Source: a virus. Taken from it: a DNA stretch of 64,000 nucleotides. The stretch spans positions 1 to 64,000 of IMG/VR virus record IMGVR_UViG_3300037117_000143. One strand, given 5' to 3'. How positions within the stretch are numbered: position 1 is the stretch's first letter; each line of letters begins with the position of its first letter. A program made the translations under genes and the position numbers. Shown piece after piece: positions 384 to 64,000 of this stretch. The notes beneath the pieces are model-generated. The model made no database searches and had not been told where the DNA came from. It was given only the letters and a program-made list of their open reading frames with translations.

Positions 384-1076
384 ATGGCCGGCGGTATCAC
401 AGCAAGTTTTAATTACGATCATAGTACGCGAGGTCTTATCCTTGCGCAGGTCGTGGCGGCTCTTAACGCTGGCCCCACAGGACTTTTTGTTGGTCCCACG
501 GGTAATACGGGCCCAACGACAGGTCCAACTGGTTTTGCAGGGCCTGGTGGCGTTGTTGGACCGACTGGTCCTGTTGGCGCTGGCACCGGATCGCAGGGGC
601 AGCAGGGCTATCGCGGCATTACAGGATTTACAGGAACCTCGGGTCCCACCGGACAAACTGGCGGTGCCGGCATCGCCGGTACACTTGGACCAATGGGAGC
701 CATTGGTGGCGGCACCGGCAACACCGGACCGACCGGCACGACGACTGGTCCGACTGGCCCCACCGGTTTGAACTTCGCCGGCAACACGGGACCAACAGGA
801 CCGTCTGGTGTCACCGGTCCAGTCGGCACCATTGGCATTATGGGGTTTGTTGGTCCTACCGGACCGACCGGTCCGACGGGCATCGAGTTGCCGAATTTAC
901 CTTATGGTTCTGCGTTGTTCCCTGGTAGCACAGGCGGTGCAGGTTATCCGCCGGATCTTTGGATTGCTCCTGGAGTAACCCAGGCTCACGGTTTTGCTTG
1001 GTTCAATGTGAACGCGACAGGCATCACCGGCGATAGCCAGGGCATGAACTCTTACGCTCAGTTTACGGTGTCATAA
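384..1076 (+). CDS. collagen-like tail/virion protein 1
   Basis: A 230-residue protein with a short helical head (about 1-35), a Gly-X-Y tract rich in GPTG units (about 36-170) and a non-repetitive C-terminal domain (about 170-230) containing a GITGDSQG turn. Phage collagen-like tracts form trimeric stalks in fibres and appendages. A weak AGGA lies upstream of the ATG. The stop overlaps the next start (TAATG), and three such genes follow one another, suggesting coupled expression and possibly one mixed appendage. It is probably displayed on the virion; its receptor or partner is unknown. Confidence 0.75.
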
Positions 1077-1696
1077 TGGCGCGAGAAATTGGCACGGACG
1101 GTCCTATTCCCCAGATCCTGAATGTTGACGGGAACAACATCAGCAGCGTGCTGAAGTTGGTCGTTGACCAAATCAATCAAGGCGTGACGGGCGGCTTCAC
1201 TGGCCCGACCGGCCCTGCTGGTCTTGGACAGCTTACAGGCCCGACGGGCCCGACGGGCACACTGACGGGCCCTACGGGTCCTGTTGGGGGCCCGGTTGGC
1301 CCGGTTGGGTGGACGGGGTTGAGTGGGCCTACTGGCAGCGCTGGTGCGCCGGGCCCAGTAGGAACTACGGGCTACAGCGGACCCCAGGGTCCGACTGGGC
1401 TAGTTGGCATCAGTCAAGCGACTGCGACGGGCCCGACAGGCCCTATGGGGATTAGCACCGGCCAAACCGGCAATACCGGCCACTCCGGTGCGTTTACCGG
1501 CAACACTGGCCCTACCGGCCCGCAAGCGCCGACCGGCCCTACAGGCCTCACCGGAGTGATTGGACCGACCGGCACGACTGGAATGACCGGCCCGACGGGC
1601 TCCAGCTTCTTCCTCTTCCAGCCGCCGACTGCAGACCCCCACGCTTATGGGCAGGTCTGGAGCAACGGTGGCGTTCTCAACGTGAGCTTGGGGTAA
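1076..1696 (+). CDS. collagen-like tail/virion protein 2
   Basis: A 206-residue protein. A helical N-terminus ([13 protein letters not shown]) precedes a Gly-X-Y tract covering most of the chain. A short C-terminal cap contains a DPHAYGQVW motif and ends in beta-type sequence. The same 'DPH..G' cap occurs in the next gene, so the caps look paralogous. It starts at the TAATG overlap with the previous gene. The role is inferred: trimeric fibre or head decoration. Confidence 0.75.
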
Positions 1697-1700
1697 GGAA

Positions 1701-2498
1701 ATGGCCATTATTCCAACTCCTCTCGGCTCCGGTGCAGGTGACACCTACGATGATAACCAGCTCTCGGTTACCCTCGACCAGGTTGTGCAGATCCTTCTCA
1801 ACAACCAGGCTACCGGCCCAGCCGGCCCGGCCGGCCCGACTGGCCCTGTCGCCGCGGGTACTGGCACGACGGGCCCTACCGGCCCTACTTTTGGCGTATT
1901 CGCTAAGTGGGCGACGGGCATTACCGGCACGACCGGTGTCACATCGACAAGTGGTTACATCGGCGCTACAGGTCCGTACGGGGCACCTACGGGTATTACC
2001 GGACCGACTGGCTACACTGGCCCCGCGGGTCCGACCGGCCTTGTCGGCTGGACAGGCCTCAGTGGTCCGACCGGCCAAACCGGCCCTACCGGGCCCCAAG
2101 GCCCCGCCGTATGCACCGGACCTACTGGCATGCAAGCTACCGCGGGCACGGGCAAAACAGGCTTTACGGGCCCCTCTGGCTCAAATACAGGCATTACAGG
2201 CGCGACCGGCCCAACCGGCTCCGCGAACATCACGGGACCGTCCGGCGCTACTGGCCCGACTGGCCGCTTGCAGTATTCGTACGTTCCGCCCACGGGCGCG
2301 ACCGGTACGGGTGCAGGGGGTGGCAGTGGCCCTGCCTACTACGCGCAAGGGGGCCCGGCAGGCCCGGCAGGGGCGGTTGCGAATACCGTTTTCTTCCCGC
2401 CAATCTTGGATCCGCATATTCCAGGCGCGGTCTATTGGCTGCCAGCCTTCGGCAACACCGGTTTGTTCCGATCGGGCGGCATCCCCGGGGCCAGCTAA
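1701..2498 (+). CDS. collagen-like tail/virion protein 3
   Basis: A 265-residue protein, third in a row of the same design: helical N-terminus ([13 protein letters not shown]), long GPTG/GATG tract, then a cap with [12 protein letters not shown] near residues 235-247. An AAGGAA ribosome-binding site lies just upstream of the ATG. The antisense frames give long valine/proline-rich ORFs, which are composition artefacts. Likely a fibrous virion component encoded with its two neighbours. Confidence 0.75.
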
Positions 2499-6299: not shown

Positions 6300-6922
6300 A
6301 CCCGATCATCCTGATCCACGCCACCCCTGCCGATGAGAGGCGCGGCCTTGTGCAGGCGATCAGGGAGACGTGGCTTGCCGGTTGGGGCGCTATTATCCCG
6401 CACCGCTTCATCTACGACCGTACTCGCACAGGCACGGTACAAGAAGACGAGTGGGTATTTGACGTTGACCCAGGATATTGGGTAATGATGCGCAAGACAC
6501 AGGCTGCGGTGACCTTGGCGGCCGCAAACGGATACTCACATGCCTTCGTTATCTGTTCCGACACTTACGTTGTTATCTCCCGCTTATTGGCTTCGGGATA
6601 CGAGGACCATCACTACTCGGGACACCGAGCGGATGAGGGCCATGCTGGCGGCGGCTGCGGATACTGGCTTGATTTACGCGCCATGTATCGGATCATCGAC
6701 GCCCGCGTCTTCAGCGACTACGAAGACCGGTGGGTCGGAATCGTCCTGAAAGAGGCCGGCATCGAGTGTTTCCACGATCCCAGATATTGGGGGGCTGTGC
6801 ATCCGTATCTGGATGGGATCATAACGGTGCATCTGCACCAAGGTGACGGGGTGCTAGATCCACAAGCACTCCGTGATCAGCACACGGCTTTCAGGACGGA
6901 CGGTGAAGTATGCGCGCATTAA
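6296..6922 (+). CDS. GT31-like (Fringe/galactosyltransferase-type) glycosyltransferase
   Basis: About 208 residues. The start is set by the ATGA overlap at 6296. Features matching GT31-like enzymes: ILIHATPADERR...IRETWL at the N-terminus, FDVDPGYWVMMRKT, an acidic metal site in CSDTYVV, then GGGCGYWLDLRAM where GT31 enzymes have the 'GGxGY' acceptor loop, and an EDRWVGIVLKEAGI segment. Family placement is tentative. Its place between glycosyltransferase and epimerase genes supports a role in one oligosaccharide pathway. Confidence 0.55.
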   Translation: MNPIILIHATPADERRGLVQAIRETWLAGWGAIIPHRFIYDRTRTGTVQEDEWVFDVDPGYWVMMRKTQAAVTLAAANGYSHAFVICSDTYVVISRLLASGYEDHHYSGHRADEGHAGGGCGYWLDLRAMYRIIDARVFSDYEDRWVGIVLKEAGIECFHDPRYWGAVHPYLDGIITVHLHQGDGVLDPQALRDQHTAFRTDGEVCAH

Positions 6923-7920
6923 TCACTGGAGCCGGCGGTTCAATCGGCTGCCACGTCCTTCGCCATCTTATGGCTAACACCGACTGGGATATCATCGCTA
7001 TAGACAGTTTTCGCCACAAGGGTCTTACAGATCGAATTGAACGAGTAACGTTCAAGCACCCAGAGACACGAGAGCGGCTTAGCGTGTTTACGCACGACCT
7101 GCAGGCACCGTTCAGCCCCATGCTCACCAAGAAAATAGGCCATGTGGACTACATTTTTAATTTAGCGGCGATGTCAGATGTGGACGATTCGCTTGAGCAT
7201 CCCTACTTCAATATCCGAGCCAATTGTGAGATCATGCTTAATGTCCTCGAATACGCCAGACAGGTCAAGCCTAAGGCCTTCCTGCACGTAAGCACTGACG
7301 AGGTTTTCGGGCCTAGCGACGGTGAGCGCTACCACCCCGAGTGGGATGCCATTATCCCTTCTAATCCATATTCGGCATCCAAAGCGGCACAGGAAGCGTT
7401 TGCGTGCGGCTACTGGAGAGCATACCAATTGCCATTGATTCTCACAAATTTCATGAATCAGTTTGGCGAAATGCAAAGTGTTGCCAAGTTCCCCGCGATC
7501 TGCATTCGGAAGATCATGCGCGGCGAGACGGTGACGATCCACGGCTCACCCGATGCAATCGGCTCGCGTTTCTACATGCACGCGCGCAACGCGGCCGACG
7601 CCATGTTGTTCCTCGTTAAAAAGACTATGCCCTACCTCCACGAAGAGGGTGAGGTCGATCGTCCTGACCGCTACAACGTTGTCGGTAGCCAGCGCGTTAC
7701 CAATTTAGATTTCGCCAAACTAGTTGCGAAATATCTCGATAAACCCTTGCATTTTAATTGGTCCGACTTTAAGGTCGCTAGGCCTGGGCACGATTGGCAC
7801 TACGGTTTAGATGGAACGAAGCTACACGATCTTGGTTGGTATCCCCCGATCTCGTTTGAAGAGTCTCTGCAAAATACTGTGGCCTGGTATCAAAGGAATA
7901 AATCGTGGCTAGACATATAA
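6910..7920 (+). CDS. NAD(P)-dependent sugar epimerase/dehydratase (extended SDR)
   Basis: 336 residues with a Rossmann start GAGGSIG (7-13), active-site region HVSTDEVFG (about 126-134) and catalytic Tyr154/Lys158 in PYSASK. The layout matches the dTDP-glucose 4,6-dehydratase/GDP-mannose dehydratase branch of extended SDRs, which make 4-keto-6-deoxy nucleotide sugars. A sugar C-methyltransferase of the kind that acts on keto sugars lies directly downstream, which supports a deoxysugar route. The nucleotide and sugar are unknown. It overlaps the next gene by 16 bases. Confidence 0.8.
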   Translation: MRALITGAGGSIGCHVLRHLMANTDWDIIAIDSFRHKGLTDRIERVTFKHPETRERLSVFTHDLQAPFSPMLTKKIGHVDYIFNLAAMSDVDDSLEHPYFNIRANCEIMLNVLEYARQVKPKAFLHVSTDEVFGPSDGERYHPEWDAIIPSNPYSASKAAQEAFACGYWRAYQLPLILTNFMNQFGEMQSVAKFPAICIRKIMRGETVTIHGSPDAIGSRFYMHARNAADAMLFLVKKTMPYLHEEGEVDRPDRYNVVGSQRVTNLDFAKLVAKYLDKPLHFNWSDFKVARPGHDWHYGLDGTKLHDLGWYPPISFEESLQNTVAWYQRNKSWLDI

Positions 7921-9167: not shown

Positions 9168-9736
9168 CGTCGCTATGCGAGCTCAGCCGGAAGTATGGCA
9201 CCGACAAGGGTGGCGTGATGGAACCGACGCCGAATCATCGCGCCAACCTGTTCCACGACTACACGCCGATCTACTACGACCTGATGAAGGACTGGGCGTC
9301 GGAGGCGTGGAACATTCTCGAGATTGGCGTTGCCGAGGGGCGCAGCGCGCGCATGTGGGCCGAGTTCTTCCCGAACGCGAAGATAACCGGGTTCGATATT
9401 GACCCGAAGAGCCTAGAAATTAAGGAGAACCGGATCCGCACCTTCTACTGCGACCAGAGCGATAGTCGGTCTATCGCCAAGGCCCTCGGTGCTTCGTACA
9501 AACGGAACAAGAGCCTTTTTGACTACATCATCGATGACGGCTCTCATATTTACGGGCATCAGATTATAACAATGCTTGGTCTGCTGCCAACCCTCAAATC
9601 CCATGGCATCTACTTCATTGAAGACCGCATTGACGAGGCGCCACCAGTTGAAGCTCCACAGGGCTGGACTAACAAGGTCTTTCGCTGGACCGATAAACCC
9701 CACAGCATGCTGCAAGTTATCAGGAGAGTTCAGTGA
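9164..9736 (+). CDS. class I SAM-dependent methyltransferase (sugar O-methyltransferase-like)
   Basis: 190 residues. LCELSRKYGTDKG at the N-terminus, LEIGVAEGRSARMW as SAM motif I, GFDIDPKS as motif II and DYIIDDGSHIYGHQ as the later active-site region fit the macrocin O-methyltransferase/CmcI-like group. The 'DDGSH' segment holds the putative metal and catalytic acids. It probably O-methylates a sugar made by the neighbouring enzymes. It overlaps both the previous gene (ATGA) and the next (GTGA). Confidence 0.7.
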   Translation: MTSLCELSRKYGTDKGGVMEPTPNHRANLFHDYTPIYYDLMKDWASEAWNILEIGVAEGRSARMWAEFFPNAKITGFDIDPKSLEIKENRIRTFYCDQSDSRSIAKALGASYKRNKSLFDYIIDDGSHIYGHQIITMLGLLPTLKSHGIYFIEDRIDEAPPVEAPQGWTNKVFRWTDKPHSMLQVIRRVQ

Positions 9737-10698
9737 AGCGCTTCAAAGGCAAGACAGTCCTGATCACCGGCGCTGCCGGCTTTCTCGGTCGCCACTTGAC
9801 CAAGAAATTCAAAGAGCTAGGCGCTCACGTTTACTCGCTCGACAACTATATCACCGGTGCCGAGCATGACGAGTCAATTATGCCCGCTGACGTTACCAAC
9901 CACACGGTGTTCGATGGTGCGCTCCACTACATCCTCCACGCCGCCGGCATCGCGTCTCCGGTTTTTTACGCCCAACACCCGCTGGAGACGATCGACGTTG
10001 CCGTGAAGGGCACGCGTAACATGCTTGTCCTCGCCGAGATGCATCCAGAGCTGGAAGGCTTCCTGTATTTCAGCTCGAGTGAGATCTATGGAGGTCCTCA
10101 TGTCGTACCTACACCCGAAACGTACCGTGGAAATGTTAGCTGTACGGGGCCAAGAGCGTGTTATGATGAATCAAAGCGACTTGGGGAGACCCTATGTTCT
10201 ATATACCACCAACAATACGGAGTTCCCGTTAGAACTGTTCGCCCATTCAATATATTTGGGCCTGGCATGTCCCATGCGGATCGACGTGTCGTGCCCATGT
10301 TCACCTACGAGGCTCTTAATGATCGCCCTCTCCCTCTGTTTCGCGATGGCAGGCAGACGCGTACGTTTTGCTATATCACCGATGCGATTGATGGATTTCT
10401 CAAGGTACTTTTGGACGGGCGCATAGGTGAGGCCTATAATATCGGCAACCCGAGCCCCGAGATTTCTATGCGAGATCTAACGCTCCTCTTCAAAGACTTC
10501 TTCCCGAAGTCGACCTACAAATCCATGCCATATCCCGACGAGTATCCGACCGACGAGCCCTTGCGTCGCTGTCCCGATGTCGTAAAAGCGTGGCGTGATG
10601 TCGGTTATCAGCCGCAGTGGACGCTTGCGCGCGGGCTCTGTGAATTCATCGAGTGGGCGCAGGAACAACCTTCCTATCGGGACTTAACGATTTCTTGA
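9733..10698 (+). CDS. NAD-dependent extended SDR, UDP-glucuronate decarboxylase-like
   Basis: 321 residues, GTG start overlapping the preceding TGA with AGGAGA upstream. Rossmann motif GAAGFLG (13-19), HAAG, SSSEIYG, and Tyr144/Lys148 in CYDESKR. The combination 'GPRACYDESKRLGE' plus RPFNIFGPGM is the pattern of UDP-glucuronate decarboxylase (UXS) and related epimerases. It is the last gene of the glycan cluster. The reaction (UDP-xylose type synthesis or a 4-epimerisation) cannot be decided from sequence alone. Confidence 0.75.
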   Translation: MKRFKGKTVLITGAAGFLGRHLTKKFKELGAHVYSLDNYITGAEHDESIMPADVTNHTVFDGALHYILHAAGIASPVFYAQHPLETIDVAVKGTRNMLVLAEMHPELEGFLYFSSSEIYGGPHVVPTPETYRGNVSCTGPRACYDESKRLGETLCSIYHQQYGVPVRTVRPFNIFGPGMSHADRRVVPMFTYEALNDRPLPLFRDGRQTRTFCYITDAIDGFLKVLLDGRIGEAYNIGNPSPEISMRDLTLLFKDFFPKSTYKSMPYPDEYPTDEPLRRCPDVVKAWRDVGYQPQWTLARGLCEFIEWAQEQPSYRDLTIS

Positions 10699-16495: not shown

Positions 16496-17797
16496 ATGAC
16501 AGTTTCTGTGAACGGTCCAGCTCCAGTCTACGCGCGCCCCGTTGTTAGTTCGTACGGGCCACAAGGCCCCACAGGTCCGGCTGGTGGTCCAACGGGAAAC
16601 ACCGGTAACAGCGGCCCCACGGGCGCAGGTGCAGTGGGTCCTCAAGGACCAACCGGACAACAAGGTCTGCAGGGATTCACTGGGAATACCGGGCCGACCG
16701 GTTTCAGTGGCCCCGCCGGCGTAACCGGATCCCCAGGCGCAGCAACAAATACTGGCGCGACGGGCCCTTCTGGCCCTACCGGCTTTACGGGTGCTGGCGG
16801 TGCCGCGTCAAACACAGGCGCTACAGGTTTTACTGGTCCTACGGGCAGCACCGGCTATGGTGCGACGGGCCCCACTGCTGGCCAAGTCGCGGTGAATTAT
16901 TTCTTTGGCAGCAATGCACCGCAGGGCCAAACTGCAACGAATGGCGACGCCGGTCTCCCGCTAGCAACAGGCTTTGGTGCCGGCCGCCTGGCTGCGTCGA
17001 TTACGCCGGCGGTTAGTGGCGATGTAATGTTCAGAATTGACGGGTCAATTTATAATATTACTCTTGGTTCCCCCGTTGCACTTGGCGTAGTTTACGGCAC
17101 CGGTATTGCGCCGGCATTTCAAACCGCTGTCCCTTGGAATGTTGTCGGGGGCACGGGGGCCTATAATGGCAGCAACGCCCAGTATGGTGGGTTTTCTGCG
17201 GGGGGAATTGCTTCCGGGTTAATTGCCGGAACAAAATATTGGTTTGATCTTATAACTTATCCAATAGGTTCGGGCACGGTAGAATTGCTTACATGTAATT
17301 TGACCGCCTACGAACTTGGCGGTGGTCAGTATGGTCCTACGGGCTACACTGGAAATACCGGACCAACTGGACCGTCTGGCCCCACCGGTCTTCAGGGCTC
17401 CGCCACAAATACAGGAGCAACAGGACCAACATTCACTGCAACGGGGAATACTGGGCCCCAGGGTGCATCTGGGCCGATCAACCTTAACGTGAACACCCTA
17501 TCAACCGCCTACACGGCCGTGTTGGCTGATGGCGGCGGTGTTCTCTACCATTCAGGAAACGATGGATCTGCGCGCACGTTTACAATTCCCGCCAACGCTG
17601 CTGTGGCGTATCCAGTTGGAACGACCCTCACGTTCGTAAATTTTGGAGGCGCTCTTACGATCGCGATTAATTCTGACACTCTAGCTTGGGCAGCGGCGAA
17701 TCTTACAGGAACTCGCACACTAACATCGTACGGTATAGCTACTGCACTCAAATTTGACGCGACTCTATGGGTAATCTCCGGCGCGGGATTGTCGTAA
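16496..17797 (+). CDS. collagen-like tail fibre with two beta domains
   Basis: 433 residues. Collagen-like Gly-X-Y tract (about 20-125), a beta domain of about 140 residues (NYFFGSNAPQGQ...AGTKYWFDL...YELGGG), a second short GPTG tract (about 280-320), and a C-terminal beta domain (STAYTAVLADGGGVLYHSG...LWVISGAGLS). The first beta domain is paralogous to one in the 720-residue fibre at 18.8 kb (both share 'GTKYWFDL' and end 'ELGG'). Likely a trimeric receptor-binding fibre. Confidence 0.8.
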   Translation: MTVSVNGPAPVYARPVVSSYGPQGPTGPAGGPTGNTGNSGPTGAGAVGPQGPTGQQGLQGFTGNTGPTGFSGPAGVTGSPGAATNTGATGPSGPTGFTGAGGAASNTGATGFTGPTGSTGYGATGPTAGQVAVNYFFGSNAPQGQTATNGDAGLPLATGFGAGRLAASITPAVSGDVMFRIDGSIYNITLGSPVALGVVYGTGIAPAFQTAVPWNVVGGTGAYNGSNAQYGGFSAGGIASGLIAGTKYWFDLITYPIGSGTVELLTCNLTAYELGGGQYGPTGYTGNTGPTGPSGPTGLQGSATNTGATGPTFTATGNTGPQGASGPINLNVNTLSTAYTAVLADGGGVLYHSGNDGSARTFTIPANAAVAYPVGTTLTFVNFGGALTIAINSDTLAWAAANLTGTRTLTSYGIATALKFDATLWVISGAGLS

Positions 17798-17798
17798 T

Positions 17799-18533
17799 AT
17801 GGGCCACGCTCCAGTCCCGGCTCTCTTCATCAACGCCGTCATCGCCAAGACGGTAACGTACACATCGGGGTCTGGCTCGTTCCATGTGCCACCATACAAT
17901 ACTCTCACGATTAAAATGTGGGGCGCTGCCGGCGGCGGTGGCGGCGGTAGCGGCGGCCAGGGGGAATATGGTGGGTCCCCCGGCAGTATCGGTGCAGTTG
18001 GTGCGAATTCTACTGCCGGCTCTTTAACATCTAACGGTGGCGGCGGTGGCGGTCGCAGTGGCGGCGGCAGTGGCGGCGGAGCCAGTGGGGGCAATACGGC
18101 GAATACTGCCGGCTACCCCGGTATTACGAATAATGGTGTTGGAGGGGGCAACGGTGGCGCTGCTGCTGCTGGTGGTGGGGCTGGTGGTGCTGGCGCAACG
18201 TCTGGCTTTGGAGTAGGCGGAGCTGTTGGAAATCCTCCTGGCGGTGGCGGTGGCGCTGGTTCCGGCGGCGCACCTGGTGCATATGCCCGTGCTCCTGGCG
18301 TGGGTGGCGGCGGTGGCGGTGGCGGTGGATACACGTATAGTTTATGGAACCCCTCCACTACCGGGGCCCCAGCTACCGGATCAACTATTGCTTGGATAGT
18401 TGGAGCAGGCGGCACGGGGGGCGCGGGGGGCGCGGGTGGCGGTGGCGGCGGTGGCAGTCAGTTTCCCGCTGGCGGAGCTGGCGGAGCTGGCGGAGCTGGT
18501 GCCCGCGGACAAGTCCAATTCATAGTGAGCTAG
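17799..18533 (+). CDS. glycine-rich fibre/spike protein
   Basis: 244 residues, more than a third glycine. The N-terminus (VTYTSGSGSFHVPPYNTLTIKMWGAAGGG) is the signature start of the phage glycine-rich domain family, where a beta strand leads into a polyglycine-II-like bundle. Long Gly tracts with periodic aromatic interruptions follow, and the end is hydrophobic (GQVQFIVS). Such domains cap tail fibres or adhesins and diversify by recombination. Antisense Pro-rich ORFs are artefacts. Confidence 0.75.
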   Translation: MGHAPVPALFINAVIAKTVTYTSGSGSFHVPPYNTLTIKMWGAAGGGGGGSGGQGEYGGSPGSIGAVGANSTAGSLTSNGGGGGGRSGGGSGGGASGGNTANTAGYPGITNNGVGGGNGGAAAAGGGAGGAGATSGFGVGGAVGNPPGGGGGAGSGGAPGAYARAPGVGGGGGGGGGYTYSLWNPSTTGAPATGSTIAWIVGAGGTGGAGGAGGGGGGGSQFPAGGAGGAGGAGARGQVQFIVS

Positions 18534-18535
18534 TT

Positions 18536-18767
18536 ATGCCCGACTTCTACGCAAACGCTCCGCCCCCTTTCGACGTGCCCAACGACCATCCGTTTTATGC
18601 GAATCCCGCTATCGTGTTCGTGAAGGCCGGCCTGACTCCGTTAATTGAACATCCGGCCTACCCTCCGCCGTTCGCGAAGCCACCGACCAATGAAATCGTG
18701 CACCCATCAGCCGCGTCTAGTTTCAAGAGAATAACTACCTTCTCCACGATCATTGCGAGGCAGCGCA

Positions 18768-18781
<14 letters not shown>
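18536..18781 (+). CDS. small proline-rich hypothetical protein between fibre genes
   Basis: About 81 residues from the ATG just after the glycine-rich gene's stop. Rich in Pro, Phe and Asn ([22 protein letters not shown]), with no known domain. The end overlaps the start of the large fibre gene by 14 bases, indicating coupled translation. It may be a fibre adaptor (inference). Confidence 0.6.
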
Positions 18782-20930
<2,149 letters not shown>

Positions 20931-35410: not shown

Positions 35411-35626
35411 GTGACGAAGGTTGGAACCGGCGCCGTGACAGAGCACACCTATCTCACCCCACACCTGGCAAAAGAGCAGCTCGCCGCACGCATGCGGCTG
35501 GGCCACATCCTCTATCGGCACGTTGACGTCGACGACATGAATCTCAGCGACGACGCTTTTATTCGGAAGGTGTGGGAGCGCTACCTGGCGTCCCGCGAGA
35601 CGCCTCTCATTGATCCGGCCGAATAA
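35411..35626 (+). CDS. small acidic hypothetical protein at the convergent junction
   Basis: About 71 residues from a GTG at 35411 (a TTG at 35387 is also possible). TYLTPHLAKEQLAARMRLGHILYRHVDVDDMNLSDDAFIRKVWERYL looks like a real helical protein. It is the last gene of the rightward structural block and its final 20 bases overlap the end of the leftward primase-helicase gene. No terminator is visible between the two. Confidence 0.5.
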   Translation: MTKVGTGAVTEHTYLTPHLAKEQLAARMRLGHILYRHVDVDDMNLSDDAFIRKVWERYLASRETPLIDPAE

Positions 35627-38609
35627 CCTTAAGCCGATCGGCATCGTTGCGCTTCTTGATTTCCGCCGCAGGGGTGTACGCTTGCGCTGTTTCATCCAAC
35701 CAGCTGTCCTGTGGGACAGGGATCTCCAACAGGCGTTCTTGTCCACCTTGGAATAGGGTACCTGCAGCGAGGTTTGCTCGCCCATCCCGCATTTTATAGA
35801 ACGTGCGCAAGCCCGCCATGACCATGCTCGGGCTGTGCTTCGTTTTGTGCAGATGATCGATAAATTGTTTCCGAGAAATTCGCAGCAAGTGCTCGTCAAG
35901 CACGAACTGGACATGGATCGGCGCATCAGTGTGTTCCGGGCCGCCAACAAAACCAACCTGCTTGCTACGGCCGCCAGCGCCGCGCACCATATCACGGGTT
36001 CTGATTGTATTGCCGGCCATGGCTTTGATGAAATGCGTCAAGGCAGCGGTGATATTTTCCTCCGAGTCTCCGATCAAATCTTCCGAGACGACCCGGTCAC
36101 GTATGGCTTTGTAGGAGTCGACGAGGAATACGTGAATTTCTTCAGTGTTGAAGCTAGCTCCAATTGTATTAGCCAATCGAGCACCTGCCAATATTGTGGT
36201 GGCAATCGCGAGCCAGAACCTCTCATCCGGCTTGTACGCGACTTCGTCCGCGAGCTTCTTTTGTGTGTCTGTGACAAATTCCTGCATGGCCTCCGGGTTT
36301 GACAGCATGACCTTGGAATAGCGTTCTCCCATTCGCCCATAGTTGGTCTCCAACTGCTGCTGTAGAATAGTCGCCGCCCACTCCTCGATGCGGCCGGGCG
36401 TATTGTCGTCATTCTTGGGAACAAGGAATTCAAAAGTGCGGTAGATGCCGGCGGCGTTGCTCTGCTGGTGATCAACCATGTAATCGAACAGACTAACGTT
36501 GGAGCAGATCGTCAGCAGCGACTGCCAGCTTCCCACCACCTTCTGCGAGCGGTCGACATTCATCTTGCCGCCGTCCTTGCCTTGGGTGATATCGACAAGA
36601 ACCTCGGCGGCCTTCTCGATGGCCTTGGGCAGCGAGACGTCGTCCCAATAGCACGGCAGGTTATTCAGCTCCGCCATCTTGCCGCGCATGCTGTTCTGTG
36701 ACGAGCTGGCTACTTCCTTAGTCAATTTCGGATTGCCCCAGACAGCGGCGCCCACATTCAACGCAGTAGATTTGTTCCCCCCGCTCTGCGAGTACGCGAC
36801 TAGCGCCCCCGAATAGTGCCCGGTGAAGTGGAGCAAAGGCGATGCAAAGGCCGCCGCGGCAATACATTCGATCGCCGGCCGATGTTGGTCCGTCACCAGC
36901 TTGAGGGCTTTGAACCACGTCTCTATGTCTCCCTGTGGGGTGTAGAGGGCGCGCACGGCGGGATCACCTGAAGATGATTTCATTGTTGTTCCATCCTTCT
37001 TGTTGATGATGCCACCGTAGGCCCAGCCCGTGTCATGGCCGGCTTCCTTGTACCAGCCATAGGGTACGGTATCACGGGCGGCTTTCATACTGTTGAACCT
37101 GTCCATCCACGCCACCATAAACTCCATCAAAAGCTTCGTTGTACCTGGGCTGTAGAGTACGAATTGTTTTGACAGCGATCCGCCTAGCATGGCCGCTGAC
37201 GCCAAATCTTTGCTCTCGACCAACACTTCTACCGTGCTACCTTTATCCGTAGAAGCGGTGAAATTCAAGCCTCTATTCTTCTGCGTCCAGGGCTCTGTGA
37301 TCACGCAGTGGAAGAGCGGTATGTCGACCGGCACGGCAGCCGTGCGCGTTTTCACTATGCGCCCCACGTTGTTGGTGGAGTACCCCAAAGGCAGCTGGAG
37401 GTCGTTGGCGAGAGTGCTAGGATTTGAACCTAGATCCGCGGTGGAGGCCGCTGTTCTATCCGGTTGAACTACACTCCCAAGAATATTAAGCGGCGACTTA
37501 ATCGTGCCTTTAAGCGGGCAGGCAGCGCACTGTTTGGAACCATATTGCTCAAACGTCCTACAAGAGGGCCAGCCAAGCTTCTTTTCTTGCTGCTCCGCTT
37601 CCTTGCGGTCGTACATCGCATCGGCACCCGCCTCGGTGTAATCCGCATGGCCAGTGCTCAGCGTGTGGAAGAGCTCGCGGCCCTTCCGCATGAACGTCGT
37701 CGTGAGGGCTGTGAGCATCCACAGCCCCTGATCGTGGTATTTCCCTCCGGTCAGTATGGTGCCGCGCAGAAACGGGCATTGGTGGAACGCGGGCGCCGGA
37801 TCTAGGAGATCAACTTCAACGGTCCCAATTTCTTTTTGGTACCCAGCGGTGAGGATATCGGGTGATCCGGCTTGCGGGGGAAGGTGGCAGAAGATCCACG
37901 CGCCAGTCTGAGCCCCCGCAGCCACTCGTTGTTGTCCGGGTACGGCTTTGATTCCGGCGAACGCTTGCTCGAAGTTGATGTCTTGCGGGGCGAGGAGGAG
38001 GAGTTTGACTTCGCGAGGGATTTGCTCTTTTTTATTGTAGGTGCCGGGGACGCGGAGAATTCGCGCGCAATCGATTGTAACCCCTGCGTCAAATCGGAGA
38101 CCAAAATGTGTAGCTGCTGTTCGGAGTCCCTCGGCAAATAGGGTCCAACCCTCAACTGGTAACTCTTTAGAAGAGATCCAATAGCAGTGTACTCCACCTC
38201 CAGATCCAACAAGAGCTGTCGGGGAAGGTAAATTTTCGGCGGCGCAGAAGGCCTTGATTGCTTGGAGGGCTTCGGTGACACTGGCATATCCTTTCTCTTT
38301 GACATCTAGGTCAAGCCAAATGGCTTTAAGTGCAACCGTGTTGAGGTGATTTCGGAGTGCGTGCGCGCGACCATTGACTATTTTCCCTATGTCTTTCTGC
38401 CGGCCTAGGCAGAAGTAGATGTCCTTCGCCATGCCCGGATGCGTCTTGGCCCACTCGACACCTTTCATGAAGTCGGCGAGCGTCTGAAACGGCAGGCCGG
38501 CCATACCCTGCCGCTTCACCATAGAATAATGCAAGTTGATGTAGCCGGGTTCATCACCCGGCCACGCCATTACTCGCCTTAGAAATTCCGCAATACTCGG
38601 CGCCACCAT
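35607..38609 (-). CDS. primase-helicase (AEP-like primase fused to DUF927-type helicase)
   Basis: 1000 residues. N-terminal primase-like part: WLDLDVKEKGY (about 97-107, DxD metal site), SGGGVHCYW, and CARILRVPGTYNKK. A cysteine pair 'KQCAACPLKGTIKSPLNIL' closes this half near 375. After a linker comes the helicase: DTVPYGWY...GWAYGG as in DUF927 proteins, Walker A SGGNKST (about 606-612), and Walker B CYWDDV (about 653). It would prime and unwind DNA at the phage fork. The linker (about 377-401) is encoded by a tRNA-like sequence; see that feature. First large gene of the leftward replication module. Confidence 0.8.
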   Translation of the reverse strand: MVAPSIAEFLRRVMAWPGDEPGYINLHYSMVKRQGMAGLPFQTLADFMKGVEWAKTHPGMAKDIYFCLGRQKDIGKIVNGRAHALRNHLNTVALKAIWLDLDVKEKGYASVTEALQAIKAFCAAENLPSPTALVGSGGGVHCYWISSKELPVEGWTLFAEGLRTAATHFGLRFDAGVTIDCARILRVPGTYNKKEQIPREVKLLLLAPQDINFEQAFAGIKAVPGQQRVAAGAQTGAWIFCHLPPQAGSPDILTAGYQKEIGTVEVDLLDPAPAFHQCPFLRGTILTGGKYHDQGLWMLTALTTTFMRKGRELFHTLSTGHADYTEAGADAMYDRKEAEQQEKKLGWPSCRTFEQYGSKQCAACPLKGTIKSPLNILGSVVQPDRTAASTADLGSNPSTLANDLQLPLGYSTNNVGRIVKTRTAAVPVDIPLFHCVITEPWTQKNRGLNFTASTDKGSTVEVLVESKDLASAAMLGGSLSKQFVLYSPGTTKLLMEFMVAWMDRFNSMKAARDTVPYGWYKEAGHDTGWAYGGIINKKDGTTMKSSSGDPAVRALYTPQGDIETWFKALKLVTDQHRPAIECIAAAAFASPLLHFTGHYSGALVAYSQSGGNKSTALNVGAAVWGNPKLTKEVASSSQNSMRGKMAELNNLPCYWDDVSLPKAIEKAAEVLVDITQGKDGGKMNVDRSQKVVGSWQSLLTICSNVSLFDYMVDHQQSNAAGIYRTFEFLVPKNDDNTPGRIEEWAATILQQQLETNYGRMGERYSKVMLSNPEAMQEFVTDTQKKLADEVAYKPDERFWLAIATTILAGARLANTIGASFNTEEIHVFLVDSYKAIRDRVVSEDLIGDSEENITAALTHFIKAMAGNTIRTRDMVRGAGGRSKQVGFVGGPEHTDAPIHVQFVLDEHLLRISRKQFIDHLHKTKHSPSMVMAGLRTFYKMRDGRANLAAGTLFQGGQERLLEIPVPQDSWLDETAQAYTPAAEIKKRNDADRLKVIRPDQ
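37406..37478 (-). tRNA. tRNA-like sequence inside the primase-helicase gene, shortened anticodon arm
   Basis: On the minus strand: acceptor arms GGGAGTG and CACTCTC (one G-U), D-stem GTTC/GAAC with GG in the loop, T-arm CTAGG-TTCAAAT-CCTAG, discriminator G and encoded CCA. Only the anticodon region departs: between the D- and T-arms there are about four bases fewer than normal, leaving GCGG-CCTCCA-CCGC. A CCA triplet after T would suggest Trp, which usually has G73, but the loop is not canonical. The frame of the enclosing gene reads through without a stop. It may be an active odd tRNA, a degenerate tRNA, or a tRNA mimic. Confidence 0.6.
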
Positions 38610-39865: not shown

Positions 39866-40264
39866 CTAGGCCTCCTGGTTATTTGTGCGGGACAGATAGT
39901 CGATAGCATCTTTAAGGCGCACAACGCTATCCCTAAAATGCCCCAAACCAACATTGCATGTGTGGCATAGAATACCGCGCACAACATTGGTTTCATGGTT
40001 GTGATCAATGTGCCAATTGTTTCCATTTGGCTTGTCGCTTTTGCAGCAGGCGCAACGACGCCCCTGCGCCATGAACATGCGATCGTACTCAGCTATCGTG
40101 ATGCCGTACTCCCGTTTAAGTTTGGCGCGTCGCATATAAATTTTCCACTTTTCCGGATTAGCCTTTGCCCACGCCCTATTCCGCGCTCGGATACGACCTG
40201 GATCGGCAGCGTGATAGCCTCGCTGCAACTCAGCGTGGCGAGTTAGTTGGGCTTTAGTCCTCAT
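39866..40264 (-). CDS. HNH endonuclease, endonuclease VII type
   Basis: About 132 residues from the ATG at 40264; the upstream ATG at 40294 lies deeper inside the previous gene. Basic N-terminus, REYGITIAEYDRMF, CACCKSD, HIDHNHETNVVRGILC, TCNVGLG: the full endonuclease VII-like module. It overlaps the preceding gene and abuts the next, as its relatives at 5.2 and 59.6 kb do. Likely a homing-type nuclease. Confidence 0.8.
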   Translation of the reverse strand: MRTKAQLTRHAELQRGYHAADPGRIRARNRAWAKANPEKWKIYMRRAKLKREYGITIAEYDRMFMAQGRRCACCKSDKPNGNNWHIDHNHETNVVRGILCHTCNVGLGHFRDSVVRLKDAIDYLSRTNNQEA

Positions 40265-40691
40265 CGTTTTCCGAAGCTCCTGGACGCCTGACACCTACTT
40301 TTGCTATCGCATTTATCGCGACGCCCGGTAGCGGAGCGCCATTTTCCTTCTCGAAATCTCGGGCGGCTTGCACATTGCACTTCCAATCGAGAAGATCGTA
40401 GTTTGCCGTGCCGATGACGTGTCTGGAGAACTCCTGCTTGTCTTTGATCGAGGCGCTGTACTTGGTGGTTGAGTAGAACGTGCCCGTCTTGCAGGCACCC
40501 CTAATCTGACCGGTCTTATCTAAAAAAGTCTGAAGGATGCCCTCGATTGTCGTCATCGCCAGTTTCTTTTTGGCGATCCGCTCCTTATGCGCTACCTCTT
40601 GTGCCTTGACCCAATCGCGGCACTGGATGTAGAGGGCCACCATGGCGTCGACCTTCTCGAGATCGAGCGGGCTGGCAACTTCTTCGGTCAT
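40254..40691 (-). CDS. conserved phage protein with coiled-coil N-terminus
   Basis: 145 residues from the ATG in an ATGA overlap. An N-terminal helix pair (LDLEKVDAMVALYIQCRDWVKAQEVAHKERIAKKKLAMTTIE, split by no motif), then 'GACKTGTFYSTTKYSASIKDKQEF..HVIGTANYDLLDWKCNVQAARDFEKENG.PLPGVAINAIAKVGVRR'. This layout is that of a common phage protein of unknown function placed in replication operons, distantly like Gam-type nuclease inhibitors. Role unproven. Confidence 0.6.
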   Translation of the reverse strand: MTEEVASPLDLEKVDAMVALYIQCRDWVKAQEVAHKERIAKKKLAMTTIEGILQTFLDKTGQIRGACKTGTFYSTTKYSASIKDKQEFSRHVIGTANYDLLDWKCNVQAARDFEKENGAPLPGVAINAIAKVGVRRPGASENDED

Positions 40692-41128
40692 CGCACACTC
40701 CAACTTCTCTGCTTTTGGATATCGTAGATAGTAGCCCTGCTTACTCCAAATTCTGCAGCAAGAGCTAGAACATTTCCAGGGTGTTGTCGAGAACCAATTT
40801 GTACGCGACGCCGAATATCACGCGCCTGTGATAGCGAAATTACATTGCGCCGGTTGCGATTTTGAGTTAGGCGTGTAGCCCACCGCCAGTTGTTCGGGCC
40901 ATAGTCGTTGTTGTTCTTGGGTCGGTCAAGAGCCCATCCTTTTCCTGGGTGCGGGCCTACATCTAGCGCGAACAGTTCAAAGCTATTCCATCTCTTGTGT
41001 ATTTTTATCCCTCGGCCACCATAATTCGCCCAACACAACGCATTTGGATTGTTACAGCGGGCACGCATATTACTCCATGCGCAGTATAGGGGGCTGTTAC
41101 TCGAGTTTAACCCATGGCGATATTTCAT
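40688..41128 (-). CDS. HNH-type endonuclease, YGGRGI family copy 1
   Basis: 146 residues. Y-C-AWSNMRARCNNP, NYGGRGIKIHKRW..FELFALDVGPHPGKGWALDR, and NNWRWATRLTQNRNRR follow the pattern of a free-standing HNH-like family. The C-terminal 50 residues form a helix-turn-helix (VLALAAEFGVSRATIYDIQ) probably used to bind the target. Two paralogues lie at 43.5 and 44.9 kb. It overlaps both neighbours by four to ten bases. Confidence 0.75.
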   Translation of the reverse strand: MKYRHGLNSSNSPLYCAWSNMRARCNNPNALCWANYGGRGIKIHKRWNSFELFALDVGPHPGKGWALDRPKNNNDYGPNNWRWATRLTQNRNRRNVISLSQARDIRRRVQIGSRQHPGNVLALAAEFGVSRATIYDIQKQRSWSVR

Positions 41129-57005: not shown

Positions 57006-57197
57006 ATGGCCAAACCAGGTAAGCGCAAGTTCCCCCTCTGCGACGTCTGGGCGAAGGACATCCTAGCACCGTATCGCCGTGGGGGCTACGAGGCAAAATA
57101 TAACCAGCTCGAGCAGGCGATCTACGAAGCGCTGGTGGAAGCGTGCCAACGTGGCACCCCGCTGCCGTTCGGTTATGTCGAAGCAGGGCCGGCCTGA
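57006..57197 (+). CDS. 63-residue hypothetical protein
   Basis: MAKPGKRKFPLCDVWAKDILAPYRRGGYEAKYNQLEQAIYEALVEACQRG. Helical after a basic start. Ends with TGATG at the next start. A GTGCCAACGTGGCAC inverted repeat lies within it at 57143. Not recognised. Confidence 0.55.
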   Translation: MAKPGKRKFPLCDVWAKDILAPYRRGGYEAKYNQLEQAIYEALVEACQRGTPLPFGYVEAGPA

Positions 57198-58054
57198 TGA
57201 CCCCCCGAAAAATCCTGATTTGTGGTTTGCCTGGCAGTGGCAAGACCACGCTGGCAAAATCGCTAGCACCGCTGATCAACGCCGTGCACTATGACGGCGA
57301 CGAAGTTCGCTCCGTGACCCTCAACGACGACTTCAGCGTGGCTGGTCGCGCCAAACAGGTCGTCGACATGCGATGGTTGTGTGACAAGGTGAGAGCCGCG
57401 GGGCAGAACGTGATCGCCAGTTTTATTTGCCCGACTGCCGCTCTTCGCGAGGTCTTCGCTGCGGACTACACTATCCTCATGGACACCTCTCCCGACATTA
57501 AATACGCCGACACCAGGGTGATGTGGGAATATCCCAGCGATCCGGACTGGACCGTTAGAGGGTTCGGAACGAGCACCGATTCGATCTCGTCCGTTGACAT
57601 GATCGTTGCAGACTTGAACAAGCCAGCACCTTCCCCGTACGCGTGGAACAACGAAGCGCCAACAGGTTTGGTTCTTGGCAGGTTCCAGCCGTTCCATGCC
57701 GGGCATAAGGCGCTCGTCGATGAAGCGTTGAAGCGCTACCCGCAGGTGATGATCTGTGTTCGGTCCATGCCGGTATCTGACAAGAATCCATACACCTCGT
57801 TGCAGGCCCGCAACTTCATTTGGGAGTCCGTAGGTGATTACGGTGACCGCGTGCGCGTGTTGCCTATGCCAAACATCGCCTCGGTCCTCTATGGCCGGGA
57901 TGTCGGCTACAAGATCGAACGGGTGCACCTTGACACGGAGACAGAATTGATATCCGCTACCGAGATACGAGGGCGGTACGGTCAGAATTCTATTCCGTCG
58001 GTCATCAAGGACTTCAATATGGATGACCCGCTACCAGAGGAACTGTATCCATGA
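57197..58054 (+). CDS. P-loop kinase (APS kinase-like) fused to NMNAT-like nucleotidyltransferase
   Basis: 285 residues. N-terminal kinase: GLPGSGKTT (10-18), HYDGDEVRS, DFSVAGRAKQVVDMRWL and NVIASFICPTAALRE, all typical of the adenylylsulfate kinase fold. C-terminal half (about 156-270): GRFQPFHAGH (161-170) and ISATEIRG (252-259), the HxGH and IS-x-T-x-IR motifs of NadM/NadR-type adenylyltransferases. It may make NAD+ from a phosphorylated nicotinamide riboside, or activate another small molecule; the kinase could also supply PAPS for the sulfotransferase. Start coupled by TGATG. Confidence 0.75.
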   Translation: MTPRKILICGLPGSGKTTLAKSLAPLINAVHYDGDEVRSVTLNDDFSVAGRAKQVVDMRWLCDKVRAAGQNVIASFICPTAALREVFAADYTILMDTSPDIKYADTRVMWEYPSDPDWTVRGFGTSTDSISSVDMIVADLNKPAPSPYAWNNEAPTGLVLGRFQPFHAGHKALVDEALKRYPQVMICVRSMPVSDKNPYTSLQARNFIWESVGDYGDRVRVLPMPNIASVLYGRDVGYKIERVHLDTETELISATEIRGRYGQNSIPSVIKDFNMDDPLPEELYP

Positions 58055-61117: not shown

Positions 61118-62593
61118 TCAGGTCCATGCCGCGGACGTAGGTGCCTGCTTCTTCCGCACCTTACGGCCCCAGATGTGCTGCGCCACGTAATCCGTCAGCC
61201 CACCGTGCACGATCAGCGAGACGTATTGCAGATCGTCGACTACGTGCGAGAAGCCTTCGATGTCGTCTTTGTTCGGCTTCGGCTTGAGGGCGCCGTCCCG
61301 CGTTTTTTTGAACCGGTAGCCGCCTGCCATTGCTCTGCAGAGGAGAGGGCAACCCGTGCGTGATATAATGAGAGACGGGCCTCCGTTAGTCTGTCTGGCC
61401 AATAGGGCTTCGACGGCCATAATCCGTTTTTCAATGTCATTTGTTGGAGCTGGGAAAGCTGCGAGGCCGAGTCTTTTAAGAGCATCAAACATACTTTCCT
61501 CAGAGACGCTGCTTTTAGATATGCCCGATGGATCGCCGATAAGGACGACGCGGTAGCCGGTGAATTGGTTGACGAGCGTGGGGACGAGTCTTTCTTTGAC
61601 ATGTTTATCCAGGCCTATGTTGGTGGCGCCGACTTCCTTATGCACAAGAAGACGCCCCATGTGATCCATTTGACATACAAGGGACCAAGGGTTGCGCCCA
61701 AAGTCTTGGCCAACGAGGAGAGGATATCCCGGGATAGGTAGCGTGTCGTCCACAATGTGAAAATTAGGCCGAAAGCTTTCCTTGAATACGGCCGCGCCAC
61801 TGGGGTCATCGCCGTATTCTGATTTGACGTAGCGCTTGACCCAGTCGTGGTCGATTCCCCAGAACGCAACAGGTCGCTCATAGTATTTCCTCCCCTGCGC
61901 CTCGCGCGCCGGATGGCCCACCGGCAACTTCACCGACTCTTCCGTCTGTTCCAGGAACGACAGATTTTCTGCTTCTGGAGAGAGCCCGGAGGGTTGATGA
62001 AACAATTGCCAGTCGGGCGGCAAGTTCGTCATAAAAGTATGCCAGGGGGTCATTTCCGTCGGCGAGTTGGTGTCCGCGATTATTCCACTCCACGTCGGAG
62101 TGCCACGCGCCCCCGCCGGATATCTTCCCAAACGCCCAGTGACAGGCGTAACAACATCCAAGTTCATCTCGATACATTCTGATAGCCACGCTCCCGTCAA
62201 CTGCATCGATAAGAGTCTCGCTTGATCCGTTGCATCCTCCAGGGGAATGAAGAACCACTCGCTTCGGACGTCTTCGAAGTTCAGGTGGAACACGCTCTCG
62301 CTTACTTTCCATTTGCCTAGTCCCGGGGTTGCTAAGATGGTTTCGCAGTCCTTGACGACAGTGTCCTTGAGCTGCTTCAGCGTCTGCCGCACGACCGCGT
62401 GTCTGGTGTAGCGTAGGCCGTCCGGCGCCTTCGCCTGCGCCCGCGACTTCATGAACAGGTCCAGGATGCAGCCGGTAGTCTTCCCTGAGCCCACAGGGCC
62501 CATCAAGATGCGGCCAAACGACTTGGAGTCCATGAACCGCCCGATAGTCGGTGCGGAGCGCCTTAGATTATAGTCTATGACTATGTCTGCCAT
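61118..62593 (-). CDS. terL: terminase large subunit
   Basis: 491 residues. ATPase: Walker A GPVGSGKT (32-39), RQTLKQLKDTV, and Walker B region LTGAWLSECIEM. Nuclease (RuvC-like): VGQDFGRNPWSLV (first Asp), VVLIGDPSG (second acid) and HVVDDLQYVSL (last acids). This is the packaging motor that cuts concatemers and drives DNA into the procapsid. It abuts the rightward block end to end. The portal gene is not seen in the window, so the packaging genes are split from the capsid genes here. Confidence 0.9.
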   Translation of the reverse strand: MADIVIDYNLRRSAPTIGRFMDSKSFGRILMGPVGSGKTTGCILDLFMKSRAQAKAPDGLRYTRHAVVRQTLKQLKDTVVKDCETILATPGLGKWKVSESVFHLNFEDVRSEWFFIPLEDATDQARLLSMQLTGAWLSECIEMNLDVVTPVTGRLGRYPAGARGTPTWSGIIADTNSPTEMTPWHTFMTNLPPDWQLFHQPSGLSPEAENLSFLEQTEESVKLPVGHPAREAQGRKYYERPVAFWGIDHDWVKRYVKSEYGDDPSGAAVFKESFRPNFHIVDDTLPIPGYPLLVGQDFGRNPWSLVCQMDHMGRLLVHKEVGATNIGLDKHVKERLVPTLVNQFTGYRVVLIGDPSGISKSSVSEESMFDALKRLGLAAFPAPTNDIEKRIMAVEALLARQTNGGPSLIISRTGCPLLCRAMAGGYRFKKTRDGALKPKPNKDDIEGFSHVVDDLQYVSLIVHGGLTDYVAQHIWGRKVRKKQAPTSAAWT

Positions 62594-63090
62594 GCTAGGT
62601 GTTTCCAGTTTACACCAGAGCGAATCTTGTTGACCGTGCTTTTCTTTACACCAAACAATTTGCCGGTAGCCATTGCTGTTATTGCGCCCCTACAAGCTAA
62701 AATTTGTTTGGCTTGGTCTTCTGTAAGTTTTGCACCACCACCCTTTTCTCCTACTGCATGGCGGTTTTTCTTCATTTGGTCCGCTATGTTTTCAGCTGCT
62801 GTGCCCGGAAACAGGTGGTCCGGCCGAACGCATAAAGTAGTATCACAGGTGTGGCACGCATAGATACCCCGGGGCACGCGCCCGATTTGGAGAGCCAGCG
62901 ATATCCGTGGGGCCGACGCACGGCGGCTGCTCCCATGAAACTTAAAGCGACCATATCCGTTTTCTGCGTGCGGCTGCCACAGCCAGCATGCGCCCGGGTT
63001 CCAGTCTATTTTGACCCGAGTCCAAAAGGCCGCTTCTGTTGTTGCGCTAATGTCTGAAAGACACAGTTCTTTTTCTAGCGTTTTTCCCAC
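62581..63090 (-). CDS. HNH endonuclease (HNH_3 type)
   Basis: About 169 residues from the GTG at 63090, which lies in the end of the upstream gene; residues before it in the open frame look non-coding. FWTRVKID...CWLWQPHAENGYGRFKF, RISLALQIGRVPRGIYACHTCDTTLCVRPDHLFPGTAAENIADQMKKNRH is the HNH_3 pattern (His, Asn/Asp, His). A C-terminal helix-turn-helix (ATGKLFGVKKSTVNKIRSG) probably guides target binding. It overlaps the terminase start by 13 bases: inserted at the terminase junction. Confidence 0.8.
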   Translation of the reverse strand: MGKTLEKELCLSDISATTEAAFWTRVKIDWNPGACWLWQPHAENGYGRFKFHGSSRRASAPRISLALQIGRVPRGIYACHTCDTTLCVRPDHLFPGTAAENIADQMKKNRHAVGEKGGGAKLTEDQAKQILACRGAITAMATGKLFGVKKSTVNKIRSGVNWKHLAWQT

Positions 63091-64000
63091 GTTACCCACT
63101 CTCTGGCCGCTTGCGTTTTGATTTTTCCCTCTAAATAAACTTCCCAGCGGGCCGTGGTGCCCCACTGCGGATGGTTGAACCAAAGCGCTTGGGAGGGTGT
63201 TGTGGGTGGTGCACGCAGCTTAAGCGCCGCATATTCATCCCAGCCTTTTAGCGCGTTATTTACTGTTACTCCCGGAAGCCACAAAAGTTGGTGCCAGTGG
63301 CATAAAACTAATTCGTCGAAGTCCAGGCCGATTTTATGAGTTTGCTGACCAAGCTTGATGCTACCTCTGACGACGGGCCCGATTGCCGCAATAATTCCAT
63401 CGCCACCTTTAACTCCAAGATTATCGCCATGTGAAAGCATATATTTGGTGCCGAAGCTCTGATAGTGAACGTCGGCGGCCTCGGGGGCATCAATGTGGAT
63501 GAACTTGTTTTGCCGCGAACCAAACATCCCTTTACTGAAATGGCGGATCACGTTGCAGTAGAGAGCGTAGTCATAGTTAAAATCGGTGATGCCCTTGAAG
63601 GGTGGCTTGCGAGTAGTACGCCCGTGATTACCAACACAACAGGGGACGTACACCTTGCCGAACTTGCTCGCCATGTGTTCGAGCCCCGTGCAGAGGATGT
63701 CGGTCATGAACTCGACCGACCGGAGTGGCGTCATATCGTTGGAACGGGCGAGTTCCTCGTGGATATCCCCCCCAATCATGTCGCCGCCTAAATTGACAAT
63801 GATGCCGGGGTACTCGGTTTTGGCTTGCCCCATATGCTCGTAACAGAGATCCACGGTCGTATCGAATAACCGTAAAAACCTCTTTTTACAGACATCTTTG
63901 TTGAACCTGTTGACGTTATTAACGCCCTTGGGTTGGACCACCTCGCCCGCGTGCGAGTCTGACCACACTGTTATCGGGCAGCCGCGTGAGCCGATCTTGC
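63075..64000 (-). CDS. calcineurin-like metallophosphoesterase (5' end beyond window)
   Basis: The frame is open through the right edge; 308 residues are visible. Metal-binding motifs in order: SDSHAG, LGGDMIGGD, CCVGNHGR, LSHGDNLG and LCHWHQL, all five blocks of the calcineurin-like phosphoesterase family (Mn/Fe ligands Asp, His, Asn). In phages such enzymes are found as putative nucleases or phosphatases beside packaging genes. Substrate unknown. Its stop overlaps the HNH gene that follows. Confidence 0.85.
   Translation of the reverse strand, partial: KIGSRGCPITVWSDSHAGEVVQPKGVNNVNRFNKDVCKKRFLRLFDTTVDLCYEHMGQAKTEYPGIIVNLGGDMIGGDIHEELARSNDMTPLRSVEFMTDILCTGLEHMASKFGKVYVPCCVGNHGRTTRKPPFKGITDFNYDYALYCNVIRHFSKGMFGSRQNKFIHIDAPEAADVHYQSFGTKYMLSHGDNLGVKGGDGIIAAIGPVVRGSIKLGQQTHKIGLDFDELVLCHWHQLLWLPGVTVNNALKGWDEYAALKLRAPPTTPSQALWFNHPQWGTTARWEVYLEGKIKTQAAREWVTWEKR

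What the first reader, a model, noticed from the sequence alone, without database searches (positions are those of the whole stretch)
37406..37478. tRNA-like sequence read in frame through the linker of the primase-helicase
Seen: minus-strand acceptor, D- and T-arms all pair, the T-loop is TTCAAAT, the discriminator is G and CCA is encoded, yet the region between the D- and T-arms is about 4 bases short. The enclosing 1000-residue ORF passes through without a stop, adding about 25 residues between its primase and helicase domains. A gene nested as sense RNA within a coding linker is rare. It could be an active atypical tRNA, a decoy tRNA mimic, a relic of an inserted element, or a splice/processing point that yields two proteins.
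Basis: partly seen in the sequence, partly recalled or inferred. Interest (0 to 1): 0.85.

Follow-up and report, generated by a model that had tools for sequence, protein, structure and literature searches.

The report
Clipped tRNA inside phage primase-helicase gene
A phage DNA-replication gene contains an almost complete transfer-RNA gene that has lost only the three letters that would have been a stop signal, so the RNA sequence is translated as the flexible link between the protein's two halves; it is a rare and clear case of an RNA gene turned into protein-coding sequence.

Summary
A genuine tRNA body lies at 37406-37478 (-), read in sense through the 1000-residue primase-helicase (Rfam tRNA 50.6 bits, gathering score 29, E 7e-8). 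All 20 stem pairs, U8, A14, GG, TTCAAAT, G73 and CCA are intact; only the anticodon arm is shortened. It descends from a tRNA-Arg (UCU or CCU). Its acceptor stem is identical to a tRNA-Arg(UCU) in a 19-tRNA array on a Calothrix plasmid. In the frame used here, almost every comparable tRNA-Arg has one stop, the TAA of the anticodon loop (27 of 29 genes; frames 2 and 3 always closed). Those three bases are what is missing. The segment replaces a hypervariable Ala/Pro-rich linker and AlphaFold2 predicts residues 379-402 as disordered. No relative carries it, and the phage record has no recognised integrase. Best explanation: a captured tRNA gene, made translatable by loss of its anticodon-loop stop and now serving as linker; it cannot decode. 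The intact RNase P-type substrate suggests the mRNA may also be cut there, but that is untested. Nested tRNAs in ORFs have been predicted before (tRNA-Sec in selB), so this is a new variant: phage-borne, between domains, stop-clipped.

The parts
35607..38609 (-). Primase-helicase ORF, 1000 aa (PrimPol-type SGGGxHxYW primase half, Cys-rich module, DUF927/helicase half)
   Evidence: PHROG 25314 E 2.8e-153, DUF927 E 2.3e-16, phrog_8841 DNA primase/helicase E 6e-22
37406..37478 (-). tRNA-Arg-derived body (73 nt, CCA included), coding residues 378-401 and the first base of 402
37472..37478 (-). acceptor stem, 5' strand GGGAGTG
   Evidence: identical in Calothrix plasmid tRNA-Arg(UCU)
37453..37469 (-). 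D arm GTTC-AACCGGATA-GAAC
37438..37451 (-). clipped anticodon arm GCGG-CCTCCA-CCGC (4 bp, 6-nt loop)
37442..37443 (-). junction where TAA is missing relative to tRNA-Arg(UCU/CCU); the missing codon would be an in-frame stop
37417..37433 (-). T arm CTAGG-TTCAAAT-CCTAG
37410..37416 (-). acceptor stem, 3' strand CACTCTC
37406..37409 (-). discriminator G and encoded CCA
37479..37499 (-). conserved end of the primase/Cys-rich half, residues 371-377 KSPLNIL, directly upstream of the tRNA
37377..37403 (-). conserved start of the helicase half, residues 403-411 DLQLPLGYS, directly downstream of the tRNA

Best explanation
A tRNA-Arg(UCU or CCU) gene of mobile-element or phage type was captured by recombination into the inter-domain linker of a phage primase-helicase. 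Loss of the TAA formed by anticodon position 36 and bases 37-38 removed the only stop codon in the reading frame, so the tRNA sequence is now translated as a flexible linker of about 25 residues (GSVVQPDRTAASTADLGSNPSTLAN). It no longer works as a decoding tRNA. The RNA body still folds as a cloverleaf, so partial cutting of the mRNA by host RNase P at 37478/37479 is a likely side effect. Shown: the tRNA body, the Arg ancestry, the missing in-frame TAA, the position in a hypervariable linker, absence from relatives, predicted disorder. Inferred: capture by recombination, order of events, translation of the full-length protein, RNase P cutting.
For: Rfam and ARAGORN hits. Unbiased BLAST of 385 genomes of the class of Bradyrhizobium Tv2a-2 gave 8 hits, 6 of them tRNA-Arg (UCU or CCU). 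The closest full-length relative is a tRNA-Arg(UCU) in a 19-tRNA array on a Calothrix plasmid, with the same 14 acceptor-stem bases including G2-U71. Alignment places a 3-nt gap exactly at TAA. In 27 of 29 tRNA-Arg(NCT) genes with the same D-loop length the anticodon-loop TAA is the only stop in frame 1, and frames 2 and 3 are closed in all 29. The linker is hypervariable in length and sequence and the tRNA fills it between KSPLNI and DLxLPxGY. AlphaFold2: pLDDT below 50 for 379-402, higher on both sides. Relatives have no tRNA there. Both protein halves are full length and about 38-43% identical to members of the same family.
Against: All 20 stem pairs are still intact. Without selection this would need an insertion no older than about 0.09 substitutions per site (simulation), and no close relative exists to show a recent date. 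A functional RNA role would explain the perfect body as well. The TAA comparison set was partly collected with a pattern that requires CTAA, so it shows which frame the TAA falls in, not how common it is.
Confidence: 0.72

Rival explanations
1. The tRNA body is kept because it is an RNA processing signal. RNase P cuts the mRNA at the 5' end of the tRNA, producing a nonstop message for the primase half and a message for the helicase half with no leader, so protein output is lowered or tuned. This is the model proposed for tRNA-Sec nested in selB (PMC8124441).
For: Acceptor stem, T arm and GCCA, which from general knowledge suffice for RNase P, are perfect, while the decoding part is damaged. 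Cloverleaf energy -22.7 equals the minimum -22.8 kcal/mol within rounding.
Against: No relative has it. In the longer transcript context the predicted fold is not the cloverleaf and is no more stable than shuffles (z -0.17). No good ribosome-binding site was seen by eye upstream of the helicase half. Cutting an essential mRNA would be costly.
Confidence: 0.17
2. The embedded tRNA is an RNA decoy or a still chargeable tRNA mimic, for example against host anticodon nucleases.
For: A20 and C35-like features of arginine tRNAs persist (direct reading). tRNA arrays of the donor type are discussed as putative antidefense systems (abstract of PMC12803027).
Against: The anticodon itself, the usual target of anticodon nucleases, is the part that is broken. 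Single copy, no separate promoter shown.
Confidence: 0.05
3. It is an attP site: the phage integrates by recombination at a host tRNA-Arg.
For: tRNA genes are common attachment sites (general knowledge).
Against: No tyrosine integrase (PF00589) or serine recombinase (PF00239) in the 68 kb record. No match covering the 3' end of the tRNA in 385 genomes; the best is 79% over 54 nt ending at base 60. Integration would split an essential gene. The record may be incomplete and the host is unknown.
Confidence: 0.03
4. Assembly artefact joining two genomes at a shared tRNA.
For: Metagenome-derived record, reads not available.
Against: The reading frame is kept, both protein halves are complete and of the same family, and the tRNA lacks exactly the stop codon that would close the ORF, which a misjoin would not arrange.
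Confidence: 0.03

Closest known systems
tRNA-Sec (selC) nested in selB of Alphaproteobacteria (Mukai 2021, PMC8124441)
   Same: An entire tRNA, same strand, inside an ORF and translated; remnant forms also occur; the RNase P-mediated repression model could apply.
   Different: There the tRNA is functional, cognate to the protein, widespread and forms a C-terminal extension. Here it is a phage gene, an inter-domain linker, an unrelated tRNA-Arg with a clipped anticodon loop, found in one genome.
tRNA-Pro-like sequence nested in mitochondrial mutS of octocorals (PMC11353228)
   Same: A tRNA-like sequence inside the coding region of a large DNA-metabolism protein; RNase P recruitment proposed there.
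   Different: Conserved across octocorals (about 500 My according to the authors) with a normal tRNA-Pro-like fold; here no conservation and a broken anticodon arm.
Plasmid and phage tRNA arrays (Calothrix brevissima NIES-22 plasmid4, AP018211)
   Same: Contains the closest tRNA-Arg(UCU) found, with identical acceptor stem.
   Different: The array tRNA is intact and intergenic; overall identity only 78%.
Rickettsia palindromic elements in protein-coding genes (recalled; cited in papers, not read)
   Same: Non-coding-type DNA inserted in frame at tolerated sites of proteins.
   Different: A repeated mobile family, unrelated to tRNA; here a single copy.

Membership tests
tRNA (RF00005) | Score above the curated threshold over the whole model | tested here: met
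   50.6 bits against 29, model positions 1-71
tRNA (RF00005) | Paired acceptor, D and T arms with conserved T loop and CCA | tested here: met
   20 of 20 stem pairs; TTCAAAT; GCCA
Functional decoding tRNA-Arg | 7-nt anticodon loop with complete anticodon | tested here: not met
   6-nt loop CCTCCA on a 4-bp stem; ARAGORN cannot assign an anticodon
Functional decoding tRNA-Arg | Sequence ancestry with tRNA-Arg(UCU/CCU) | tested here: met
   6 of 8 hits in 385 genomes are Arg(UCU/CCU); Calothrix Arg(UCU) shares the acceptor stem
Functional decoding tRNA-Arg | Expressed, matured and aminoacylated | not testable with these tools
   needs RNA data
[quoted passage not shown]
   ORF 35607-38609 open through the tRNA; family members on both sides
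[quoted passage not shown]
   no tRNA in about 80 related loci
[quoted passage not shown]
   clipped anticodon loop; decoding function excluded by sequence, other RNA functions not tested
Phage attP in tRNA | Integrase in the genome | tested here: not met
   PF00589 and PF00239 absent from the 68,446-base record
Phage attP in tRNA | Exact identity with the 3' part of a host tRNA | tested here: inconclusive
   none among 385 genomes of one class; true host unknown

The most novel reading that the evidence does not exclude
A dual-coding element: the same 73 bases are selected both as a protein linker and as a tRNA-shaped RNase P signal that cuts the primase-helicase mRNA between its two domains, with the decoding part lost, making a phage-evolved processing switch out of a tRNA.
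Probability: 0.13. Interest if true: 0.85.

Novelty: new variant of a known kind. Interest (0 to 1): 0.55.

Why it matters
It appears to catch the conversion of an RNA gene into protein-coding sequence with few changes: the ancestor is recognisable and the missing three bases are the very stop codon that blocked translation. It extends nested tRNAs (so far found by the search here in cellular selB and organelle genes) to a phage and to an inter-domain linker, and gives a simple substrate to ask whether RNase P cuts such messages. It also warns annotators: a strong tRNA hit inside an ORF need not mean that one of the two is false.

Tried and rejected
Exact searches for the 5' half of the tRNA in IMG/VR and GTDB genomes, and for its T arm and acceptor 3' strand in IMG/VR: nothing. 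Search for other TAA-clipped tRNA-Arg in IMG/VR: none. Search for phage tRNAs with this acceptor and D arm: none; an earlier partial hit (L084) is an ordinary tRNA-Arg(ACG) in a phage tRNA cluster. tRNA-Trp origin considered (CTCCA could come from a CCA anticodon with AAA lost): rejected as less likely because of the GGATAGA D arm and the Arg hits, not excluded. attP rejected. A Bradyrhizobium hit whose match stops at residue 376 looked like integration at the tRNA but is a domain swap to another helicase, without a tRNA. A tRNA-Pro call in L047 nested in an ORF is not supported by Rfam. A first frame count was off by one base and was redone. Close relatives for selection tests: none found.

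Full report
Observation. The minus strand at 37478-37406 reads GGGAGTG TA GTTC AACCGGATA GAAC A GCGG CCTCCA CCGC GGAT CTAGG TTCAAAT CCTAG CACTCTC G CCA. ARAGORN reports this as the only tRNA in the window, without an assignable anticodon. Rfam's tRNA model matches end to end with 50.6 bits, gathering score 29, E 6.9e-8 for the whole window; the alignment shows the only irregularity in the anticodon arm. It lies in frame inside a 1000-residue ORF that is a phage primase-helicase (PHROG 25314, DUF927, primase/helicase PHROGs).

Not chance and not a by-product of the protein. The 20 stem pairs are all standard; 20,000 synonymous recodings of the same peptide with the gene's own codon usage gave 13.3 pairs on average, at most 19. 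The cloverleaf energy (-22.7 kcal/mol) equals the minimum of the isolated segment within rounding, although in a longer piece of message other folds compete.

Ancestry. In 385 genomes of the class that contains Bradyrhizobium Tv2a-2, eight have a match at E <= 0.001: four tRNA-Arg(UCU), two tRNA-Arg(CCU), one Gln, one Lys. The best whole-length relative in the collections searched is a tRNA-Arg(UCU) in an array of 19 tRNAs on a Calothrix plasmid, 78% identical with an identical acceptor stem, including the G2-U71 wobble. Thus even the wobble is probably ancestral and the body shows no sign of decay. Host identity cannot be concluded from this.

What is missing. Against tRNA-Arg(UCU/CCU) the window lacks TAA, the third anticodon base and bases 37-38, and has a 4-nt variable loop. 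The ORF reads the tRNA in frame 1 (GGG AGT GTA GTT CAA CCG GAT AGA ACA GCG GCC TCC | ACC GCG ...). In 29 Arg(NCT) genes with the same D-loop length, frame 1 contains the anticodon-loop TAA in all, as the only stop in 27, and frames 2 and 3 always have stops. So the lost codon is precisely the one that would have closed the ORF. The comparison set was in part selected for CTAA, so it proves the frame relation, not frequency. From tRNA-Arg(CCU) no further change in the loop is needed; from UCU one T to C change.

Where it sits. About 80 related loci from IMG/VR and two named phages (Rhizobium phage RHph_TM3_14A, Pseudomonas phage Rollin) have no tRNA in or near the gene, apart from one unsupported call. 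Alignment shows a conserved Cys-rich module ending in KSPLN and a conserved DLPxGY start of the helicase half, with between them a linker that varies from almost nothing to about 80 Ala/Pro/Gly-rich residues. The tRNA fills exactly this interval. AlphaFold2 on a 17-sequence alignment gives pLDDT below 50 for 379-402 (tRNA = 378-402) with better-modelled domains on both sides (overall pTM only 0.42). In a Bradyrhizobium genome the same primase half is joined to a different helicase right after KSPLN, so the junction tolerates recombination.

Mechanism. I conclude that a mobile tRNA-Arg gene was captured in the linker and became coding sequence by loss of TAA. Direct evidence covers the anatomy; capture, order of events and translation are inferred. 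A decoding role is excluded by the 6-nt loop. The body keeps what RNase P needs (established knowledge), so a fraction of the messages may be cut between the primase and helicase parts, as Mukai proposed for selB with tRNA-Sec (PMC8124441). Whether the body is kept by selection or is only young cannot be decided: a simulation gives about 3% chance of keeping all pairs at 0.1 substitutions per site and 20% at 0.05, and no close relative was found.

Known and new. Nested sense tRNAs are described in selB (called the first report in bacteria by its author) and in octocoral mitochondrial mutS (PMC11353228). No phage example was found in the papers searched, which is a limited library. New here: phage gene, inter-domain position, unrelated protein, and a clipped stop codon that explains how the frame was opened.

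Noticed in passing
L087:4484-6961 (Bradyrhizobium sp. Tv2a-2): The same primase half is fused, directly after the KSPLN motif, to a different helicase domain in an element with two nearby integrase-like ORFs; the linker is a module junction.
   Followed up: partly
L002:4980-8063 (MN988472): The homologous primase-helicase of Rhizobium phage RHph_TM3_14A is annotated as 'putative integrase protein' in GenBank, apparently a misannotation.
   Followed up: partly
window 384-2498 and 16496-20930: Several ORFs made largely of collagen-like GPT/GPTG repeats, probably fibre proteins.
   Followed up: no
window 39866-40294, 40688-41128 and 62581-63183: Small ORFs resembling HNH or homing-type endonucleases (by eye) scattered around the replication genes and terminase.
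   Followed up: no
window 57143-58054: ORF that by eye combines a nucleotide-kinase-like N-terminus (GLPGSGKTTLA) with a nucleotidyltransferase-like C-terminus (GRFQPFHAGH), possibly for NAD metabolism.
   Followed up: no
window 6910-7920 and 9733-10698: Two nucleotide-sugar epimerase/dehydratase-like ORFs close to glycosyltransferase-like ORFs, unusual cargo for a 68 kb phage.
   Followed up: no
window 37189-37467 (+): A 92-residue antisense ORF ends in RVLGFEPRSAVEAAVLSG, the typical false ORF from the reverse strand of a tRNA.
   Followed up: yes
L176:1102-3238: Array of 19 tRNA genes on Calothrix plasmid4 (AP018211) with no gene listed in the plasmid table over it.
   Followed up: partly
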